Below, piece after piece: positions 1,681 through 52,180 of a stretch of DNA of 64,000 nucleotides. Location: the NCBI GenBank assembly GCA_025201345.1, contig JAIXMG010000035.1, positions 186,001 to 250,000 of the forward strand, given 5' to 3'. The number at the start of each line of letters is the position of its first letter. Position 1 is the stretch's first letter. The position numbers were made by a program, and so were the translations under genes. The notes under the pieces were generated by a model, which was not told the origin of the DNA, did not search any database, and saw only the letters and a list, made by a program, of their open reading frames with translations. The DNA is from Thamnidium elegans (taxonomy: Eukaryota; Mucoromycota; Mucoromycetes; Mucorales; Mucoraceae).

Positions 1681-3822
1681 GATGAAATATATAGTATAAC
1701 AAAAAGAAAGAAAAATTAATTAGCCAGATCAGCCATTTTTATATTCGGATCCTGTGTGACCGTCTGATGTTTAAAAAGAAAAAAGAAAAACTAGCGTATC
1801 GTGAAAATACGTGGAGCTGAAGGATATCTTCGTATCTAAATGTAAAAGCTGTATAATGAACATTAAAGTATTTACTGATACTATAGTAGGTCTATATACC
1901 TTATTGAAGAGTTCTTTATCACTCACTAGACTAAAACATGGCAAAATTTGCGTAAAGTATAATGTGACCCTACTACTCGGATTATGATTTGCATTAAAAA
2001 AAAAAGATTTTTTACAAACAACCTCCCTCTATACTTAACCATCAATAATAAATAGACTATAACGCGTTTTAGTACATACATAGCTTTACTCATTCAACTA
2101 GTTATACTTTTTCTGAAAGATGAAGAGAAAATGGATCTGTTTATTTTTTTTTTGTCGTACCACCGCATCTTAATTTTATAATTTTTGATGGATTAGTAAT
2201 CCAGTTTTCCTGGTCAAACCTGATTTTTTAATTTTTTTTTTCAGGCCACAGACAAAAAAAATGTTTGGCCATATGTAGTGCATATAGGCTTGTGACAAGA
2301 GAGAGGTAACGTCTATGTACACTACCCGTGGATGTGGTTCCTGGGACTGTGTCAAAACAAACTTTTAAAATTCTACCCCTTCAGAAAACGCTACAAAACA
2401 CAGTTTTGAAATAGTAATTTCTAGGCCTTCCAGGTGACTTTTTAAGCTTGCACTATTCTACAGACTTTTGACAATGTAAACGAAGTGCATGATTCTATCG
2501 GGATAGATTGTGTGGCTATAGGTCAATATCTTACCTTCATTACGGTGATGAAGAACGATATATAGTTTTATGAGAAGGGAATTGTTTGTTTTTTTTTTGG
2601 TACACACCTTTCTTAGAATAAACTACTTCTCTTTTATCGTTTTTATTAAGTACTTTTTTTTTTATATATATGTGCACCTTTTAAAGGATCTTAGCTATTT
2701 CTAGTGTTTTTTTTTAGCATTTTTATTTTCCTTAAGCCTATACAGACGGATACGGTTCGAAACAACCGCAGCGCATAAGAGCACTTGTTACGAACGCTCC
2801 AATGTAGTCCATCCGAATGTAATATTGTAAAGTTAAAGATACTTTTTTCAGCGCTTTATGATGGTATGAAAAAAATAATAAGTATATATACATATTTTAC
2901 AAATAAATTACTTGTGGCTATTTGTATTCATTTTTTTTTATTATTCAAGTTTAAATCATCACATACATAAAGCGAGCCTATTTTCCGATACCAGCATCAG
3001 GGACTATTCTGAAGAAGAATTTAAGTTGAAGTTCTGGTAGTATGTTTTCGAAGAAATCTTTGGATACATCAAATGGTAAGTCGTCTCCAAAAAAAAGAAT
3101 TATAATCGGTGGCCAAATTCTGTAGAATGAATTCGTTCTTCAGTGGGCTGAAATTAAAGTAGTTTCTCGTATCCTGTGGCTAGGAACCAAATAAACGAAG
3201 GTGGAATCGAACGTTCTTTCATATATTAAGGTAGCGTGCTAGGACACTCACAGTACAGTCAACTTAATTATCTGTACCTTATTATAGATCTCTGCTTTAG
3301 AGATGAAGGTTCAGATAGATACTACCAAAGTTAGAAACTAAGTTAGTATGATTGATGACCTCTTGGATACGAGTATACTCGAAAGATGTTGATTACGGCA
3401 GTGGAAAGAGAAAAGTCGAAGAGCAGTTACAAAGAAGTAAGAAGAAGACCGTTTTAGGAAAAGAAGTTCAAGTAAAAAAAAATCTCATTTTCGGAATTAT
3501 ACTTCTTGGTATATCATTACCATAATAAAGAAGTTTGATTCAGATAAAAAAGAAATTAGCTAGTACAAATATAGAGCATGTACGTTTCGATTGACAGTAA
3601 ACAAAGCGGGGTTACGCAATATCTTGTCACCGTAATTTAGGCAAATAGGCACATATATATATATATATTTTAAAAACACTAAGCTCAGTTTGTATAAGAG
3701 AGAAAGAGAGAGGAATCATGTGTAAAAGTACAAAAAGGAAGCGGGGAAATATTTTAAGCCAACGGTTTTGGAGGAGAAAATTAAAAAAAAAAAGAAAACC
3801 TTTCTTTCTTATCTAAATTCAC
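1681..3822. other. 2.1-kb gene-poor intergenic region
   Basis: Only short, low-complexity ORFs occur here; the longest, about 61 codons at 2785, has no recognisable composition. The stretch upstream of ACR3 probably contains its promoter. The last 150 bases before 3823, with AT dinucleotides at 3651-3668 and GAGA-type purines at 3700-3715, probably hold the APP1 promoter and leader. I see no tRNA, repeat or coding remnant that I can name. Confidence 0.5.
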
Positions 3823-5608
3823 ATGAGCTTTTCTAGTTTTAATTCAGAAGGTGAACCACGAGTTCGTCGTCGTGACCGATTACGTTCGCTTGCACAAACA
3901 ACTACATTTGTTATAAAAAAAGAGATTAACAAGTATTATGAAGGTTCACCTCCACCTTTACCGCCCAGAAGACCTCGAAGTGTCATGTCTACAACTTCTA
4001 ATGAACCCATAAGCACAGAAATAAAACGTACTGATACAGAAGAAATTGATGATATTATAAAGAACTCTGTTCCTGACTTGGTTCAGCCTCAATGTATGTT
4101 ATTTCCAACATATGCATGTCAAGTAGATGATGATGAGCAAGAAGTTCATTGGAAAATACATTTAGCTGGTTGGGCCTTTGCTAATCCTGGTTCAAGTCGT
4201 TTAGATAGGTGGTTGCTAGGTAACCTAAAAATAAAAAAAAAATAAAAAAATAAAAAATAAAATAAAAAAAAATAAAAAAAAATTAACATTAAATGCTTTT
4301 TTTTTTTTTTTTTTAGCTGCTGGTAGAACGTATGGTGGATTATCAAGAGATACAGTAGAAGATAATCATTTTACTACATTACTAAATCAATTTCGATGCG
4401 AGACAATGCGTATGACCGATATTCAACTTACATTACCTGGCATTATTGCAAAAAAAATTATTGACGATAATGAAGAACGTTTGGAGATAAACCAACAAGA
4501 GAAAATAAGAGATTTTGCTGCTTCTGTAAATACTGGACCCAATGGACGATTTGAAGAGGAGATTTATTTAGATACTGCTTCTGTCAAGAAATTAAAGGAG
4601 CAATCAAAGTATTTGACAGTAGAAGCTAGTTTTACCGAAGATGGTAATATATACAGACATATGTAATGGCTTATTACTGCGACTAAAAACTACATATAGA
4701 AGAAACTCCATTTCCCGGTTATATAGATATCATTGATCCTTATGGTATCTCAGTCATTTCAGATATCGATGATACCATTAAAATTACAGATATTTTAGAT
4801 GGAAAAGATGCCATTTTACAAAACACATTCTTTAGAACAGCAAGAGAAGTACCTTATATGAGCGAAGTATTTAGAACTTGGGTATCAGAAGGAGCACATA
4901 TCCATTACGTATCTAATTCACCATGGCAAGTATATCCTGCTCTGAGTAAATTTATTGTCAATCAAAAATTTCCTCAGGGAAGTATGCATCTTCGAGCAGT
5001 AAGTACACAGGAATTAATTATCGGTAAACCAGGTAAACACAAGTTGGATATTATCCCCAAAATAATTCGTGATTTTCCTCATCGTAAATTTATTCTTGTG
5101 GGTGATTCTGGTGAAATTGATCCTGAAATGTAAGCTTGTACATTGTGTATATCAGCATATAAATCATATATTTATATTTATATATTATAGTTACCAGCAG
5201 GTCTATAATGAATTTCCTGATCAGATTATCAAGATATTTATACATGATGTGACCTCTCAACGTGCCATGGATGCAGACAAACTTGCAAAAGATAAACCAG
5301 ATTCTTACTATAGTAGTTTACGCAAGTTTTTATCACGAGAATCAAAATTACTAAAAAAGGGTCCTTCATCTGCTTTAGCTATTGACGCTATGGCATCCAC
5401 CGAATTACCTGACGAACAAGAACAAAGTTTGGATCCTGAAGTACCTTTATTAACTAAATTAGAACAGTTTGATCAACGTATGCAAAGAGTATCTTCTCAA
5501 ATGAGAGAAGGTGTCTTTACTGTATTTTCTCTTGCTTCTCAATTAATGTTGGATCCTGTTGTAGCTGAAGAATTCTTGATGTCCAAAACGAGCGACATGA
5601 AAATTTAA
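3823..5608 (+). CDS. APP1: APP1-type phosphatidate phosphatase (DUF2183)
   Basis: Four exons (3823-4219, 4317-4643, 4700-5129, 5191-5608) sum to 523 aa. The protein belongs to the App1/DUF2183 family, Mg2+-dependent phosphatases of the HAD superfamily that convert phosphatidate to diacylglycerol; yeast App1 acts at cortical actin patches and endocytic sites. The catalytic DxDxT motif is visible as SDIDDTIKITD in exon 3. It is followed by the family's HYVSNSPWQVYPAL segment and by the aspartates of VGDSGEIDPE, whose end is completed across the last intron (EIYQQVYNEFP). The N-terminal part contains a proline patch, SPPPLPPRRP, a plausible SH3-binding site matching App1's known link to endocytic SH3 proteins. 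The intron at 4644-4699 must be removed to avoid an early stop. Confidence 0.93.
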
Positions 5609-27908: not shown

Positions 27909-28440
27909 TGTCTCTTCTTCGTGTCCATGTTAGAAGAGACCATACTTCCAAAATATATCTTACATACAAAGGTGGTAAGTAATTCCACGTAGCTGAATGG
28001 CAATTCAATACTAATTCGTGTTATCACAGAAACGTTTTCCGTTATAAGGATTGACAGTAGATTTCGTTGGTTGTTTAAAAAGATATGGTAATGCAGACAC
28101 TTTCGCTAAGTACTTAAATGAACATGGTCAAGGCGAGTCTGTTACCGTAGTTCGGTCTAATGATGAATGTGCTGTTCTGGAGAATAATGCAATCGATCCT
28201 TTAAAGCGAAGAAACCTTGCAGATGTGGATATATTTACTTCCAGTGAAGGTAGTCAAAAAGCGCTGAAACTGAACTCTGAGAGGCAAGCATCTTGCATGA
28301 CAAAGGCGTTATATTGTGAACCCATTGCAATCCACCCATCACATGATTCGATGGTCAATTCGCATGGTATGTACGGTATTTTCAGCACTAATGATATATA
28401 CGATGCACAAGTACACTATGGCCAGATATTTGGTAAATGA
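27909..28440 (+). pseudogene. Unknown ORF remnant, possibly spliced
   Basis: An ATG at 27909 opens a short exon (SLLRVHVRRDHTSKIYLTYKG) ending in a good donor (ggtaagt). An acceptor at 28027-28028 continues it with ETFSVIRIDSRFRWLFKK and then a stop. A different frame from 28051 stays open for about 129 codons (no ATG) to 28440, with ordinary composition (Asp, Ser and His-rich). The two frames do not join without a shift or a further intron. I do not recognise the product. The repeat module upstream and the long inverted repeat that begins just after it suggest a mobile or lineage-specific gene. Confidence 0.35.
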
Positions 28441-28449
28441 TGCTGTTAT

Positions 28450-28505
28450 TACAGTGAATTGCGTTTGAAAATAGAATTTTTGGGAAATAAAAATAGAATT
28501 TTTAA
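28450..28505 (+). repeat. Left inverted repeat, outer fragment
   Basis: These 56 bp (from tacagtgaattgcgtttg through aaatagaatttttaa) match the outer end of the right arm (complement of about 33493-33548) almost base for base. The match stops where the inserted DNA begins. Confidence 0.85.
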
Positions 28506-29638
28506 TCTTGACAAGAGAAATTTTTCTTAGCCAATAGAAATTCTTATTGAGCAATAGAAATTTTTTTTAACAATAGAGTTTCTTGAGATCAATAGAAAAA
28601 AAATTATTAGCAGTAGAAGAAAAAAAAACCAGTGGTGTTTTTTATCTTATTTATAACCTTTCCATGTTGCGACATTTTGGAAATTGTCTTTGGGAATGTC
28701 GAGCCCAACCTCTATAGTTTTTTGCTGTAACTGTTTTTGCTGCTTCTTCAATTCTATCAGCAATCATTTCGTTCTTTCCAAGTGGAGTTTTGCCAACTAC
28801 TGACTTGTGTCATCATACTATCTAATTAACGATAAGAGTGAAAGATAAAGGAGTAAATCTTTTACACCATAGCCCAAGAAGTGCTAATTCGACTAAGCCT
28901 AATACGACACATTTCATATAACTGAATTAGGAACAAGAAAAAAGAAACCATTTGTTAACTGTGACTGCGCATAATTTGTAACCCGTAACCCGTAACCCGT
29001 AACCCAATACTGGTAACGCCGGAGTATCAAAAAGCAATTTGTTCCCAAAACTCCTTCTCAGTATCTTCTACTTTTCGAGGTACAGTTTGATCATCAGCTA
29101 AAAGTAGTAGTTTACCGTACGTAATAGCAGGATCCTCATCAATGACCATTTCTTCAGCAATCTCTTCGAATCGGTTGTCACTCATTACAATTTCATTTGC
29201 CATTCTCCAATGTTCGTTCAGATTATACAGTGAGAACGGTAAACTTTGTCACTTTGTCACTTTATGTCTAAAAATTTTGTCTTTTTGAAATAAAAGAAAT
29301 ATCACAATAAGTTAAATAAAATTGACCTGAAGATGATATGTATTTTCTGATTTCACTAAAAGTTGCTTGTAATTAAATGCAAAATGCTCACGTTTTAAAG
29401 CAGATTTTGAAAAAGGAAAGATGTGCTGAGGATTCATTAATTATATTATTTTGATATGAACAGATACAAATTTTCTAGCATGTTCTTGCTCACTTTAAAC
29501 TAATCATTTTGAGCGAAAGAAACGGTGACGGTGACGGCAAACTGTTTGGTCATTTCCCTCCTCTTCTTCTGATTGTAGTATGTCCATTCAAAATTGTAAA
29601 TAAACAAATTAATGTCTTCGATTGTATATTATATAATT
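28506..29638. mobile_element. Insertion inside left inverted-repeat arm, with transposase remnant
   Basis: About 1.13 kb absent from the matching right arm. It starts with four degenerate copies of a caatagaaatt-type unit (28535-28600). On the minus strand 28798-28651 it encodes a block ending KNYRGWARHSQRQFPKCR. That resembles the C-terminus of Tc1/IS630-type DDE transposases, where a VT..-Y.GW..H....P.C pattern follows the catalytic domain. A further minus-strand ORF of about 57 codons (29200-29031, MANEIVMSDNRFEEIAEEM...) may be another piece. Four copies of GTAACCC occur at 28978-29005. No intact gene remains. Confidence 0.5.
28978..29005. repeat. GTAACCC x4 microsatellite
   Basis: Four perfect head-to-tail copies of the heptamer GTAACCC. 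The complement GGGTTAC resembles telomere-type repeats with one altered base. It lies within the inserted DNA of the left arm. Confidence 0.9.
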
Positions 29639-29978
29639 CAAAGTATAACACTTTATATCTAAAAAGATGGTCTACTCAGAACTCTACTTTATTAAAACAT
29701 TTAATAATTTAACGTTTTGAATGATTAGCGAATCCGTATAATACGGTTGGAGGTCATGGCTTCGCCTTAAAAAAAATCATTTGAGTTCACTTTTCAATAA
29801 ACTGCATAAGCTCACTTTGGATCCCAGCCAAGCTCGATGTTAGGCCATAGTTTGTTTTGGTGGTAGCAGTTGCATTATTCTAAACTCGCTTTTGTTCCCA
29901 TCGAAATTCTTCAAGATTAAGCGCCTAATCCAAGTTTATTGTATTTGACATGTTTTCGGTTATGTTTCTTCCCGTTCT
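29639..29978 (+). repeat. Left inverted repeat, inner fragment (340 bp)
   Basis: Matches the complement of 33154-33493 with only a few differences over 340 bp, from aagtataacactt to gtttcttcccgttct. Homology stops abruptly at both inner ends. Confidence 0.9.
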
Positions 29979-30249
29979 GCGAAGTATACACTCGATACAC
30001 TCATTTCTCTCCTTAGAAATTCTATTTATGCACTTTATTAATGTATAAAGGCTGTTAACTCATAAAATATCTAAATAGAAACGAAACGCTTTAAACTTGC
30101 TGAAACACCTTTTCGTCTACCTAGAATTATACGTATAATAAATAGTCATTTCTTTATTAAGCAAATAGAAAATGAAAAGCAAATGCACGGGGACGTGTGT
30201 GTCTGTAACTATGAGAGGGAATTAAAAAAAAAAAAAAAACTAAGGTCAA

Positions 30250-31920
30250 CTATCCAAAGAAATCATGGCAAGTTCTTTTACGGCTTTTGTGGGGATCCAC
30301 AAACTCATAAAGAAGACTTATATTGACTGATCTTGATGACCTTTCTTTTATGATCAAAGGAGAGAGACTAGGTTTGCAGTGGCTCCAGAAAGCATTTGTA
30401 ACCTGAATTAGAAATTGCAGATTTTGGGGGCAGCAGAAAGCGGATATGTCTTTTAATGATTTCGGAAACGATACTTTACCGAGTTCAGTCATCGTGTATA
30501 GTTTATGACATGGTAGTTGAGTCATATAAAATGAAACAGAAAAGCCTGTAATACGCCAATATAAAAAAACCTGTACACCTATCACAATGAAGTGTACTTA
30601 CCATGAATTTGGAAACTAAATGAAGCATCTAAAAGATGATTATCAAGGCATTCTTTGGTTAGATGAGTTAATCGCAAAAAGTCGTTGCAAAGTGCTGCTT
30701 TATCGCATGTCGGCTGGCTAATCTTCACTTCACCAAATCCAAGGTTGACACCAAACTGTAACTGGTTGATCGTTGTAAGGGATGCGTCTGGTCTTAAAAG
30801 ATCGTCCTCAGCTTGCTTGTTTAACCATCGTAAGAGTATGTTTCTTTCATTATCGGATATAATGGCAGATAATAAAGGGTCGAAATAAATACTCCACAAT
30901 TCTGATTCAGAAATAGTAGTGATATCTACGATTGGATCTTTAGGGAGTTTTAAGACTCTATAGAAAGAAATTCCACATTAGCATTAATCAGCATATAAGA
31001 GTTATTGATAGTATTTACAGCATTGCAATGCCTATGATGACTCGGCGTTTTTCGTAATCCAAGGAATTGGAAAATACCATAAGATTAGTAGCGATATTAT
31101 GTACACTTTGGGTTTGATTTATCAAATGTTTCAATACGAGGTTTAACTGTGTTAATTCATCACTGGTAAAATCAAGCGAGGAGTTCATTGACTTTTTTAC
31201 TTGTTCATTTGTGATATATTTAATATTCTCGTCAGTGAACACTTCTCTTATCATTTTGCTATGTTGCAATGGTTTTAAAACTAGTATGTGGTTTAAGGCT
31301 GATAACTCTTGAACATGGGATTCAATTGGGATTAAACCTTCAGCCTTAACAAACTGCTCGACACGTTGACAATATTCAGTGAACAAGCTTGTAGCATTGA
31401 TACCATTCTCCAAAATCCAAGGTTCTACTTCGGCACTTTCATCTTCTTCAGTTTCATTAATTTTATTTTGCTCATCTTCATGATACTCAGTAGCTTCTTC
31501 ATCAGTCTTGTCAGTTTGGGTGTCTTTTTCTTGATTCTGACTATTATCCATGGTTCTTATTTGGTCAATTTCAGACCTGACAACATCCCGAACGTATTGG
31601 GCGCCTTCAATATGTGTGTTTGAGACTGTTTCTTCTCTTATTTTCTCTAGCCAATAGTTAGTATTCTTCTTCGAATCCATCCATATGTTATACTCGTTTC
31701 TAATGTTCACAATGTTTTTGGCGCCTTTCAGTTCATTGTTGATAATATTCTTATATCTTCTTGAAATTTTTTGTACTGAATTGTACTCATGGCCAAATGC
31801 ATCATAGAACCTTCTTGTTGTCAAATTGCGCAAATTAGAGAGACACCATTGAGTGTCCTCTGGAAGGGATTTCTTATCACCTTCACGCTTTTTGATGTTG
31901 TGTTTTTTTGACTTTGCCAT
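30250..31920 (-). CDS. Uncharacterised gene inside inverted-repeat cassette
   Basis: Three blocks read as one 528-aa protein: exon 1 31920-31019, exon 2 30957-30602, exon 3 30578-30250. The first intron is normal (61 nt). The second gap is only 23 nt, but starts gtaagt, ends ag, and its removal restores one frame. The protein is hydrophilic with a basic start, an acidic Glu/Asp-rich middle (residues about 120-170), then a helical region and a C-terminal part containing WRITGFSVSFYMTQLPCHKLYTM and a Cys/His-poor tail. I do not recognise the family and see no transposase triad. Related sequences may exist as repeated Mucoromycota hypothetical proteins, but that is recollection of style, not evidence. 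It may be a cargo gene or the element's own protein, intact or slightly damaged. Confidence 0.55.
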
Positions 31921-32371
31921 CACAGTAGCAGTCAGATAGAAATAGTTGCCTATAATTGGCTGGAAGTTATTATAGTTATTTTTTTAAAAGAATAAAGATT
32001 GCTCCCTTCTTCCTTTCCTCCTTTTAGTTTAACCTTCCGTATATTATCTGATTTCACCACTCCGCGATGTGAGTTTCAAAAAAAAATTTTAATAAAAATT
32101 TAAATTACAAAAAAAAAAAAGAAAAAGAATAAAGATAATATTAGCTAAGCAATTTAAGATTCAGATGATGACGAAACAGCTTCACGTCATTTCTAGAGTG
32201 ACGTAAACATTTTGCTAAATAAACGCAGAATAATTTTTTTTTTACATTTTGTGCTCACAAGAGCTGGAAGAAAAGAGCCGTTCAGAAGTTGGAATGAATA
32301 TGTCATGTAGATTTAAGGAAAAGATTTTAAAAAAGTTAAGTATGATTGTACATCTAGTTCAAATGGGCATA
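31921..32371. other. Intergenic stretch inside cassette
   Basis: The 5' side of the cassette gene, presumably with its promoter. A/T-rich, with an A-run at 32107-32119. No gene is seen; the ORF at 32249-32437 runs into the tandem repeat and is probably chance. Confidence 0.45.
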
Positions 32372-32856
32372 AAGATGCGCTTGCAACCACAGCTACCACC
32401 AGTCGCTATACTGAAACTGCTTACCCTGCTATCATAACTTATTTATTGCGGCCTGCATTAAACTTAATTGTTCGACCCCCAAAGTAAATAAGGTACATAT
32501 TGATATGTAAGTAGCTCAGTGTGCTTGGTTTTAGCACAGGTTCCCGATACTTTCTCCCTTGCGTTTTGCTTAGGTGCAGGACCTTTGACATTACCCGGAG
32601 AAAGGTTCTTTATGTTTCTAGAATGCGCTTGCAACCGCAGCTACCACCAGTCGCTATACTGAAACTGCTTACCCTGCTATCATAACTTATTTATTGCGGC
32701 CTGCGTTAAACTTAATTGTTCGACCCCCAAAGTAAATAAGGTACATATTGATATGTAAGTAGCTCAGTGTGCTTGGTTTTAGCACAGGTTCCCGATACTT
32801 TCTCCCTTGCGTTTTGCTTAGGTGCAGGACCTTTGACATTACCCGGAGAAGGGTTT
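32372..32856. repeat. Tandem duplication, two 235-240-bp copies (period 250)
   Basis: Copy 1 is about 32372-32610 and copy 2 about 32622-32856. Both start atgcgcttgcaacc and run to catttacccggagaa-type ends with only a handful of differences, so the duplication is recent relative to other repeats here. A short spacer (ttctttatgtttctaga) separates them. No ORF spans them convincingly. It lies between the cassette gene's 5' end and the right inverted repeat. Confidence 0.9.
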
Positions 32857-33153
32857 CTAGAGATTTGAACTAGGACTTTAATATTTGCGCTGTACATTCT
32901 AATCAAATATAACATTTAGAAACACTTCTTTATATTACCAACAAATGACCCTCTATTATGGATCTTTTTAAGACAATTTGCATATGTTGAAAACAAATCG
33001 GTATATTCCCATCCTCTCTGACTTATTGAATTGTGAAGAAGCAAGTTATATACAGACCAACAAATCAGATCATGCCATATGTGTTCATGTATTATAAAAA
33101 GTTTTGGAAAATAATGGATAATCCATTGTTGCCTCATTAATTCCCCTACATGT

Positions 33154-33548
33154 AGAACGGGAAGAAACATAACCGAAAACATGTCAAATACAATAAACTT
33201 GGATTAAGCGCTTAATCTTGAAGAATTTCGATGGGAACAAAAGCGAGTTTAGAATAATGCAACTGCTACCACCAAAACAAACTATGGCCTAACATCGAGC
33301 TTGGCTGGGATCCAAAGTGAGCTTATGCAGTTTATTGAAAAGTGAACTCAAATGATTTTTTTTAAGGCGAAGCCATGACCTCCAACCGTATTATACGGAT
33401 TCGCTAATCATTCAAAACGTTAAATTATTAAATGTTTTAATAAAGTAGAGTTCTGAGTAGACCATCTTTTTAGATATAAAAGTGTTATACTTTAAAAATT
33501 CTATTTTTATTTCCCAAAAATTCTATTTTCAAACGCAATTCACTGTAG
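33154..33548 (-). repeat. Right inverted repeat arm (~395 bp)
   Basis: Continuous inverted copy of the two left fragments (28450-28505 and 29639-29978). Because it is uninterrupted it shows the ancestral arm structure. Confidence 0.9.
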
Positions 33549-33728
33549 TGGATATAGTTACTAAATACGGAAGATATTCCGCTATTTTCCGTATATGAAT
33601 ACTAAATTCAATAACCATACTATCTCATAGTTTCCGAATTTACAGTTGTTAGTATAAAAAACAACTTTATCTGGCCACTGTGGTAAAAGTCCCGTTAGAA
33701 TCTGTATTCCTTTCTTCGCCATTAACGT

Positions 33729-34150
33729 ATGATGCAGTTTCCAACTGAAAAGAGTTCTGTTATGACCGTTGAAAATATCGAAGATGATAATTCAAAAGCT
33801 TCTGATGTGACTATACTCCTCAAAAAAACAGTACGTAGTTCTTTTGTTCCAAATCTGCTGGAGGAAAATGGAGAATACTCAGAACTTACTAAAGAGGTTC
33901 TAGCATTTTAAACTTCGAGTTTAGTGCGAATCCCTCCTCTTTGCATTCTGTAGCCAAGCTACATACTGGAGCACTTGTTATTGACAAAGAGGTCATCTTT
34001 ACTATAGCATCCGAAGCCTACAGTCGATCAAAAGCTACCGATATTCACGGAAAATCTGATCCAAAGTCTGTTCCACCCGAATCGAATTCATATTATGGAT
34101 CTATGTGTGCCGGAGTATACGGAGGCGCTATTAATAATATTGTTCAATAA
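33729..34150 (+). pseudogene. Frame-broken unknown gene fragment
   Basis: An ATG-initiated frame (33732-33911) reads MQFPTEKSSVMTVENIEDD... to LLEENGEYSELTKEVLAF and stops. A second frame is open from about 33890 and continues without a break to 34150 (RGSSILNFEFSANPSSLHS... ending YGGAINNIVQ). The two overlap, as expected for one gene with a single frameshift. I do not recognise the product. It abuts the right inverted repeat, so it could be flanking host DNA or part of an older element. Confidence 0.35.
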
Positions 34151-47600: not shown

Positions 47601-48560
47601 AAATTGTTTATCCGGGAGATCGTAGCACAACTAGATGTAACGTTGAACAAGTAAATATAATGGAAAACCGAATCAAAAAAAATTCGATAATTACAGTACT
47701 TCCATTCTCAATTGATCCTATTTTAGGACTCAATTGGTTAGGAGATAATTTGACTTTTAGGACAAAACAATTTTTTATTTTGGACGAACTACGTAAAGTA
47801 AAAATAATATGTAGGGATAGCATTTGCCTTAAGCTTAATCCTTTGTCAGTGCACCTATCCCAGAATGTCTCAGCGCGCTTGACAATCCTGAACAATAACT
47901 GATTGACAAGCTGCAGGAAGGCGAGATGTCAGAGTATCTGCTTTATCAAGTGGGTCCCTCTTGATATTGCTCTTTATTTTTGACCAGCACTCTTCAACAG
48001 GATTCAAAAAAGGAGAGTAAAAGGGTGCATGAACAAAGGTTTATTACCCTCTCTTGTTGATAGCGTCAACAACAAATGCAGAGTGGTGAATTCTTCAGTT
48101 ATCCATCACGATAAAGAATCTTTTTTCGTTGTGTTTATCAAGTGCATCCATGAATTTCACAATATGATAAACTGTGGTACCCTTTTTTTAATGACTGTTT
48201 CTTTTCTGGGTCTTTTGCTTTTCTTTTTTTTGGTGGCAGGGTTCGAATACTCTTGTTCTAGTTTTTGTGCGTCTGCTTTCGCCAAAAGGATCAACTTTTG
48301 AAAAATTGACCGTTCCAAAACATGCTATGCATCCAACAATACTTATATTAGCACCTCTTTGTTTGTGAACAGTGACATTTGCTGGTCCTCCTACTTTAGA
48401 CTAAGCTCGGCCCCTTATCATGTGCGTATTAAAGCCAGCTTCATCAACAAATACGGAATTCTTTTGAAAGTTAACGCCTATTTCCTTCCATTTACTTACG
48501 AAGTGTTCTCTCAGCATCTCTTTCTTTATTGGTCGCACTTTTTTTTATGAAAAAAAGCAT
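47600..48560 (-). pseudogene. Degenerate IS630/Tc1-type DDE transposase
   Basis: Minus-strand remnant broken by stops and frameshifts. In order it shows a helix-turn segment (EHFVSKWKEIGVNFQKN), the first catalytic Asp in VFVDEAGFNTHMIRG, GANISIVGCIA and FGTVNFSKVDP, then FMDALDKHNEKRFFIVMDN (second Asp). It continues with NPVEECWSKIKSNIKRDP (catalytic Glu) and the C-terminal FWDRCTDKG. That is the D-D-E order of the IS630-Tc1-mariner superfamily. Its first half (48147-48560) is repeated in inverse orientation at 51800-52180. Stops and frame breaks (around 48100, 48070 and 47870) rule out an active enzyme. Confidence 0.8.
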
Positions 48561-48632
48561 TACCGGTTATGAAAAAAAAGCATAACCGCTATGAAAAAAA
48601 GCATAACCGCATTACCGGTTATGACGTGCACT
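48540..48632. repeat. Left block of ATAACCG/palindrome repeats
   Basis: Four spaced copies of a unit made of gcataaccg or gcattaccgg and an A-run of 7-8 (atgaaaaaaagcat...). The block includes accggttatg half-palindromes. It matches, inverted, the block at 51700-51800. Confidence 0.8.
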
Positions 48633-51699: not shown

Positions 51700-51800
51700 A
51701 GGTTATGCTTTTTTTCATAGCGGTTATGCTTTTTTAATAGCGGTTATGCTTTTTTTCATAGCAGTTATGCTTTTTTTCATAACCGGTAATGCTTTTCTTC
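51700..51800. repeat. Right block of ATAACCG/palindrome repeats
   Basis: Four to five copies of ggttatgctttttttcatagc-type units, the inverse of the left block at 48540-48632, leading straight into the inverted transposase fragment. Confidence 0.85.
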
Positions 51801-52180
51801 ATAAAAAAAAAGTGCGACCAATAAAGAAAGAGATGCTGAGAGAACACTTCGTAAGTAAATGGAAGGAAATAGGCGTTAACTTTCAAAAGAATTCCGTATT
51901 TGTTGATGAAGCTGGGGCCGAGCTTAGTCTAAAGTAGGAGGACCAGCAAATGTCACTGTTCACAAACAAAGAGGTGCTAATATAAGTATTGTTGGATGCA
52001 TAGCATATTTTGGAACGGTCAATTTTTCAAAAGTTGATCCTTTTGGCGAAAGCAGACGCACAAAAACTAGAACAAGAGTATTCGAACCCTGCCACCAAAA
52101 AAAAGAAAAGCAAAAGACCCAGAAAAGAAACAGTCATTAAAAAAGGGTACCACAGTTTATCATATTGTGAAATTCATGGA
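51801..52180 (+). pseudogene. Inverted partial copy of the IS630/Tc1-type transposase
   Basis: Plus-strand counterpart of 48147-48545. It reads VRPIKKEMLREHFVSKWKE, then FVDEAG, and then has lost about 20 bases that in the other copy encode FNTHMIRG (here geared to AELSLK and a stop), followed by GANISIVGCIAYFGTVNF and KKKSKRPRKE in shifted frames. It ends at aattcatgga, 81 bp from the NSF stop codon. Inactive. Confidence 0.8.

What the first reader, a model, noticed from the sequence alone, without database searches (positions are those of the whole stretch)
28450..33548. Long-inverted-repeat cassette carrying an unrecognised gene
A ~395-bp right arm (33154-33548) matches in inverse the left pieces 28450-28505 and 29639-29978 with very few differences. 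Between them is a 528-aa gene with no recognisable transposase triad. Long terminal inverted repeats around an unknown gene suggest an undescribed DNA transposon type or a foldback element with cargo.
Basis: partly seen in the sequence, partly recalled or inferred. Interest (0 to 1): 0.75.

Follow-up and report, generated by a model that had tools for sequence, protein, structure and literature searches.

The report
Mariner transposon carrying a nuclease-like gene
In a mould genome, a jumping element that has lost most of its own mobility enzyme still carries an intact gene that looks like a DNA-cutting enzyme; relatives of this gene sit beside similar elements elsewhere in the genome, and the gene seems to have passed between mould species.

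Summary
The inverted repeat is real: 56 of 56 and 326 of 327 bases match. The unit 28450-33547 is not a new transposon type but a non-autonomous Tc1/mariner element. Both ends read TA-CAGTGAATTGCG, as in a 4.96-kb element on contig C19 that holds a DD34E transposase gene. The window copy keeps only the last 51-53 codons of that transposase. C19 and a C16 relic run colinearly through the left-arm boundaries, so the right arm is a derived inverted copy of the left end, lacking about 1.13 kb. The gene is intact: 517 codons in three exons. No Pfam family passes its cut-off, but a conserved RPD...ExK motif and a good model of a distant relative (pLDDT 81) point to a PD-(D/E)XK nuclease fold. Of 32 family loci, 12 lie within 5 kb of a mariner transposase (1.2 expected). 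The protein is 97% identical to one of Choanephora, where host OXA1 is 76%, which suggests horizontal transfer. Mariners with accessory nucleases are in print, so this is a new variant of a known kind. What the gene does for the element is inference.

The parts
28450..33547 (.). whole non-autonomous Tc1/mariner element, TA directly outside CAGT at both ends
28450..28505 (+). left terminal inverted repeat, 56 bp
   Evidence: 56 of 56 to 33492-33547; the other copies
33492..33547 (-). right terminal inverted repeat, 56 bp
   Evidence: 98% to C19:304755-304808
29637..29978 (+). left arm, native copy: 3' flank of the cargo gene
   Evidence: 99.1% to 33154-33496; the C16 relic runs through its inner boundary, 29911-30070, 82.5%
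33154..33496 (-). right arm, derived inverted copy
28506..29636 (.). 1.13 kb of the left end that is missing from the right arm; holds the subterminal region and the transposase remnant
   Evidence: similarity to C19 and C24
28654..28812 (-). remnant of the transposase gene, last 51-53 codons, one stop inside the longer match
   Evidence: 91% over residues 240-292; 94% over 242-292
30250..31920 (-). cargo gene, predicted PD-(D/E)XK nuclease, 517 codons, exons 31920-31019, 30957-30602, 30545-30250
   Evidence: 97% relative P0001 of 516 residues
32375..32855 (.). tandem duplication upstream of the cargo gene, 233 bp twice, about 99% identical

Best explanation
The unit 28450-33547 is a non-autonomous Tc1/mariner transposon that carries an accessory gene for a predicted PD-(D/E)XK nuclease. 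Shown: the ends, the TA flanks, the transposase remnant, an intact cargo frame, other places with the same ends, and co-location of the cargo family with mariner transposases. Inferred: a transposase acting in trans binds the ends and moves the element by cut and paste into TA. Inferred: after an excision, gap repair that switched template copied the left end (terminal repeat plus the cargo's 3' flank, less 1.13 kb) to the right end in inverse order, which made the long arms. Inferred and weaker: the nuclease helps the element persist, most likely by cutting emptied or target sites so that repair copies the element back. The cargo has probably moved between Mucorales species.
For: TACAGTGAATTGCG at both ends; the same ends at C19 and C45:721278-721549 (both ends) and at two single-end places; TA before CAGT at 7 of the 8 ends read. 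[quoted passage not shown] Remnant in the window. Left arm native at both boundaries. Intact cargo with 97% relative in Choanephora. 12 of 32 cargo clusters within 5 kb of a transposase cluster, 1.19 expected (11 of 31 without the window). A second transposase-free unit at C7:630145-632832 with 128-bp arms that start with TA. PD...ExK invariant in 9 of 9 rows of two overlapping alignments; helix-strand-strand-strand-helix-strand core in the model of P0096.
Against: No complete transposase frame with these ends was found: the C19 frame is interrupted at an A-run, so a working source is not shown. One of 8 ends lacks TA. The co-location test ignores clustering of transposons, and only 134 of 369 transposase candidates were scored. 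20 of 32 cargo clusters are not near a scored transposase. The model of the window's near-identical protein was poor (pLDDT 53.5); the good model is of a relative about 19% identical. Foldseek gave nothing at E <= 0.001. In 5 of 31 rows with letters at all four sites the PD...ExK motif is broken. Horizontal transfer rests on one host gene.
Confidence: 0.78

Rival explanations
1. The nuclease gene with its inverted arms and upstream tandem repeat is an independent mobile cassette that inserts into or next to mariner elements; the nuclease, or a factor in trans, moves or copies it.
For: In the window, C7:688k, C13 and C23 one inverted arm lies at the 3' end of the cargo gene and its partner upstream of the 5' end. 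Inverted repeats around the gene also at C17 and C7:631k, away from scored transposases. Tandem duplications upstream of the gene in the window, C7, C23 and C63. Enriched against controls.
Against: Arms differ in sequence and length and share no terminal motif; in C23 and C13 they overlap the 3' coding end of the gene. In the window the right arm is a derived copy. C19, C63, C12b, C34 and C35 show no such arms at the threshold used. The sample is small and the window was picked for its arms.
Confidence: 0.12
2. The arms are two independent insertions of one short repeat around a host gene, or the whole is an undescribed transposon type or foldback element.
For: Long near-perfect arms.
Against: Outer ends with TA flanks and a transposase remnant inside; arm sequence is otherwise found in this genome only as part of a cargo relic; one search finds no direct repeats inside the arms, as recalled foldback elements would have.
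Confidence: 0.05
3. The gene is a conserved Mucorales host gene that a mariner happened to enclose, not a passenger family.
For: Intact frame and introns; relatives in several genera.
Against: Co-location with transposases; species order contradicts the host gene; many decayed family members in this genome.
Confidence: 0.05

Closest known systems
Mariner elements with Fanzor1 and/or restriction endonuclease genes (Bao and Jurka 2013, PMC3627910; passages seen)
   Same: Mariner ends and TA flanks; accessory nuclease gene beside, or without, a mariner transposase
   Different: Theirs with endonuclease genes are in algal viruses; the Mucorales elements named in the passages carry Fanzor1 with MuDr-type ends. 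This cargo has no recognised Pfam family and occurs in Mucorales
Fungal DNA transposons with TET/JBP dioxygenase genes (PMC12730594; passages seen)
   Same: Accessory gene carried by fungal DNA transposons
   Different: Other enzyme, other transposon superfamilies; the word mariner does not occur in that text
mL37/mL65 of the animal mitoribosome, called repurposed endonucleases in PMC8998825 (passages seen)
   Different: 4-7% identity; the match is of relative P0096. That chains s and 5 are mL65 and mL37 is recalled; the call names only the mitoribosome
Type II restriction endonucleases DrdV and BpuSI

Membership tests
Tc1/mariner (IS630-Tc1-mariner) | TA target duplication | tested here: met
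   TA outside CAGT at both window ends and at 7 of 8 ends read; no empty site available
Tc1/mariner (IS630-Tc1-mariner) | terminal inverted repeats shared by several copies | tested here: met
Tc1/mariner (IS630-Tc1-mariner) | DD34E-type transposase in a relative with the same ends | tested here: met
   C19: DDE_3, spacing 34; its frame is interrupted
Tc1/mariner (IS630-Tc1-mariner) | own complete transposase (autonomy) | tested here: not met
   only 51-53 C-terminal codons remain: non-autonomous member
Tc1/mariner (IS630-Tc1-mariner) | excision and integration | not testable with these tools
   needs an assay or sister strains
PD-(D/E)XK nuclease superfamily | PD...(D/E)xK motif | tested here: met
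   present in the window protein; 9 of 9 rows; 26 of 31 rows with letters at all four sites
PD-(D/E)XK nuclease superfamily | core of three strands, helix, strand | tested here: inconclusive
PD-(D/E)XK nuclease superfamily | DNA cleavage | not testable with these tools
   assay needed
Foldback elements | inverted arms built of tandem subrepeats (recalled) | tested here: not met
   one search finds direct repeats outside the arms only (minimum length 30)
Fanzor/TnpB | RuvC-like TnpB domain | tested here: inconclusive
   no such Pfam family among matches to the window cargo; motif not searched on its own

The most novel reading that the evidence does not exclude
The gene belongs to a selfish nuclease lineage of Mucorales that uses mariners as vehicles but keeps its own cassette of inverted arms and upstream tandem repeats, copies itself by cutting and repair (homing-like), jumps between species, and stems from the same nuclease stock as the mitoribosomal proteins mL37/mL65.
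Probability: 0.1. Interest if true: 0.85.

Novelty: new variant of a known kind. Interest (0 to 1): 0.52.

Why it matters
[quoted passage not shown] A family of nuclease-like genes that rides on such elements, and is almost unchanged between mould families, makes an open question testable: what a transposon gains from an accessory nuclease. It also flags a mobile gene that annotation calls only hypothetical.

Tried and rejected
New superfamily or foldback element: rejected on ends, TA flanks and transposase remnant. RNA nature of the tandem repeat: no tRNA in 28000-34000; two Rfam snoRNA matches below their gathering scores, at 30332-30382 and 33027-33126, neither over the repeat. Pfam for the window cargo: nothing above cut-off, best RecG_wedge 21.7 bits against 23; ten relatives likewise. 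The C19 cargo's separate N-terminal frame does pass for a C2H2 zinc finger. PDB by sequence: no match at E <= 5. Foldseek: none at E <= 0.001 in PDB or BFVD.

Arms and tandem repeats against controls. Of 11 cargo stretches (90,799 bases), 6 hold an inverted repeat of at least 100 bp and 90% with 0.5-6 kb between the arms; 5 of the 6 enclose the cargo gene, the one in C2 does not. Controls: 1 in 112,006 bases counted as without cargo (18 kb of it, C16, does hold a cargo relic) and 1 of 16 transposase loci (60,282 bases). Fourteen more cargo loci of 3.2-3.5 kb hold none but are too short for both arms. Tandem duplications: 4 of 11 stretches, against 1 in the 112 kb and 1 of 16 loci; an array in C34 fell outside the filter. 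With the window left out the contrast is 5 of 10 and 3 of 10, so only a lead. Whole-genome searches with five more cargo loci: C17 62 bp at 95% and C7:631k 128 bp at 95% enclose the gene, C24 47 bp at 87%, none seen for C26 and C18 (candidates are capped).

Literature: ten searches were answered; listings were partly capped (for instance 12 of 115, 10 of 220). None of the listed titles or abstract starts described this gene family. Passages of four papers were seen; none was read whole.

Full report
What was checked. The inverted repeat exists as described: 28450-28505 with 33492-33547, 56 of 56, and 29652-29978 with 33154-33480, 326 of 327. With gaps the second pair runs 29637-29978 / 33154-33496 at 99.1%. 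The left arm is split by 28506-29636. The gene between the arms is intact on the minus strand, 517 codons in three exons with GT-AG introns of 61 and 56 nt.

Host. The window is part of a 34.1-Mb assembly of 64 contigs. Its OXA1-like frame is 100% identical over 279 residues to a Thamnidium elegans protein, so the genome is Thamnidium elegans or very close (Mucoraceae).

What the element is. The outer ends read TACAGTGAATTGCG on both sides. The same ends occur at C19 (both ends, 4.96 kb apart), C45:721278-721549 (both ends, 0.27 kb), C24:402355 and C45:1211235 (single ends); such counts are lower bounds. TA directly precedes CAGT at 7 of the 8 ends read. [quoted passage not shown] its frame is interrupted at an A-run. 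The window keeps only the last 51-53 codons. The element is therefore a non-autonomous Tc1/mariner derivative.

How the arms arose. The left end is colinear with C19 across the point where the right arm departs (28448-28633, 82%). The left arm is colinear with a C16 relic across its inner boundary (29911-30070, 82.5%). Both boundaries of the left arm are thus native, and the right arm is a derived inverted copy that lacks 1.13 kb. Template switching during gap repair is the likeliest route (inference).

A family of passengers. Of 32 clusters of cargo matches, 12 (the window included) lie within 5 kb of one of 114 transposase clusters; 1.19 were expected (P 7.5e-10). The test ignores clustering of transposons, and 20 of 32 are not near a scored transposase. 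C2 has a 69-bp perfect inverted repeat around cargo and transposase. C7:630145-632832 is a second unit without a scored transposase, with 128-bp arms that start with TA.

Recurrent anatomy. In the window, C7:688k, C13 and C23 one inverted arm lies at, or overlaps, the 3' end of the cargo gene and its partner lies upstream of the 5' end; arms differ in sequence and length (343, 729, 542, 132 bp). Near-identical tandem duplications lie upstream of the gene in the window, C7, C23 and C63. Controls make both look enriched, but the sample is small, the window was picked for its arms, and arm boundaries are inconsistent, so I treat this as a lead.

Horizontal transfer. The window protein is 97.1% identical to a Choanephora protein, 92.7% to one of Circinella over 384 well-aligned residues, 89.3% to one of Mucor mucedo. 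OXA1 gives 76.3% for Choanephora, 61.5-69.0% for four Lichtheimiaceae (the family of Circinella) and 92.5% for M. mucedo. The order is reversed for Choanephora and M. mucedo. One host gene is a thin baseline, and no foreign DNA was available to test the ends.

Compared with what is known. Mariners with accessory endonucleases, and mariner-ended elements with only an accessory gene, were reported by Bao and Jurka (passages). TET/JBP-carrying fungal transposons are a parallel (passages). The Thamnidium genome paper reports Tc1/Mariner as the largest transposon group in Mucorales (passages). So the arrangement is a known kind; the gene family, its hosts and its near-identity between mould families appear new within the ten answered paper searches listed under Tried and rejected.

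Noticed in passing
window 48147-48614 and 51735-52180: A second inverted repeat, 470 bp at 93.8%, overlapping a degenerate mariner transposase match at 47876-48472 with five stops; frames of 112-181 codons between the arms.
   Followed up: partly
window 29027-29203, minus strand: A 58-codon frame (MANEIV...) whose DNA recurs as the 115-bp inverted repeat around cargo and transposase at C12:171905-175909.
   Followed up: partly
L009 about 2430-3900; L010 about 1820-2010: A minisatellite array between the cargo and the right end of the C19 element; the same units fill the short C45 element with the same ends.
   Followed up: no
C16:72602-72761 and 85377-86232 (L011, L014): A degenerate relative of the window cargo, split about 12.6 kb apart with one piece inverted.
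   Followed up: partly
L009:4034-4798: The C19 cargo's N-terminal frame passes the Pfam cut-off for a C2H2 zinc finger (31.8 bits against 27), so family members differ in their N-terminal part.
   Followed up: no
L051:2517-3587, minus strand: Frames beside a cargo gene that look to me like a tyrosine recombinase (by eye; not searched).
   Followed up: no
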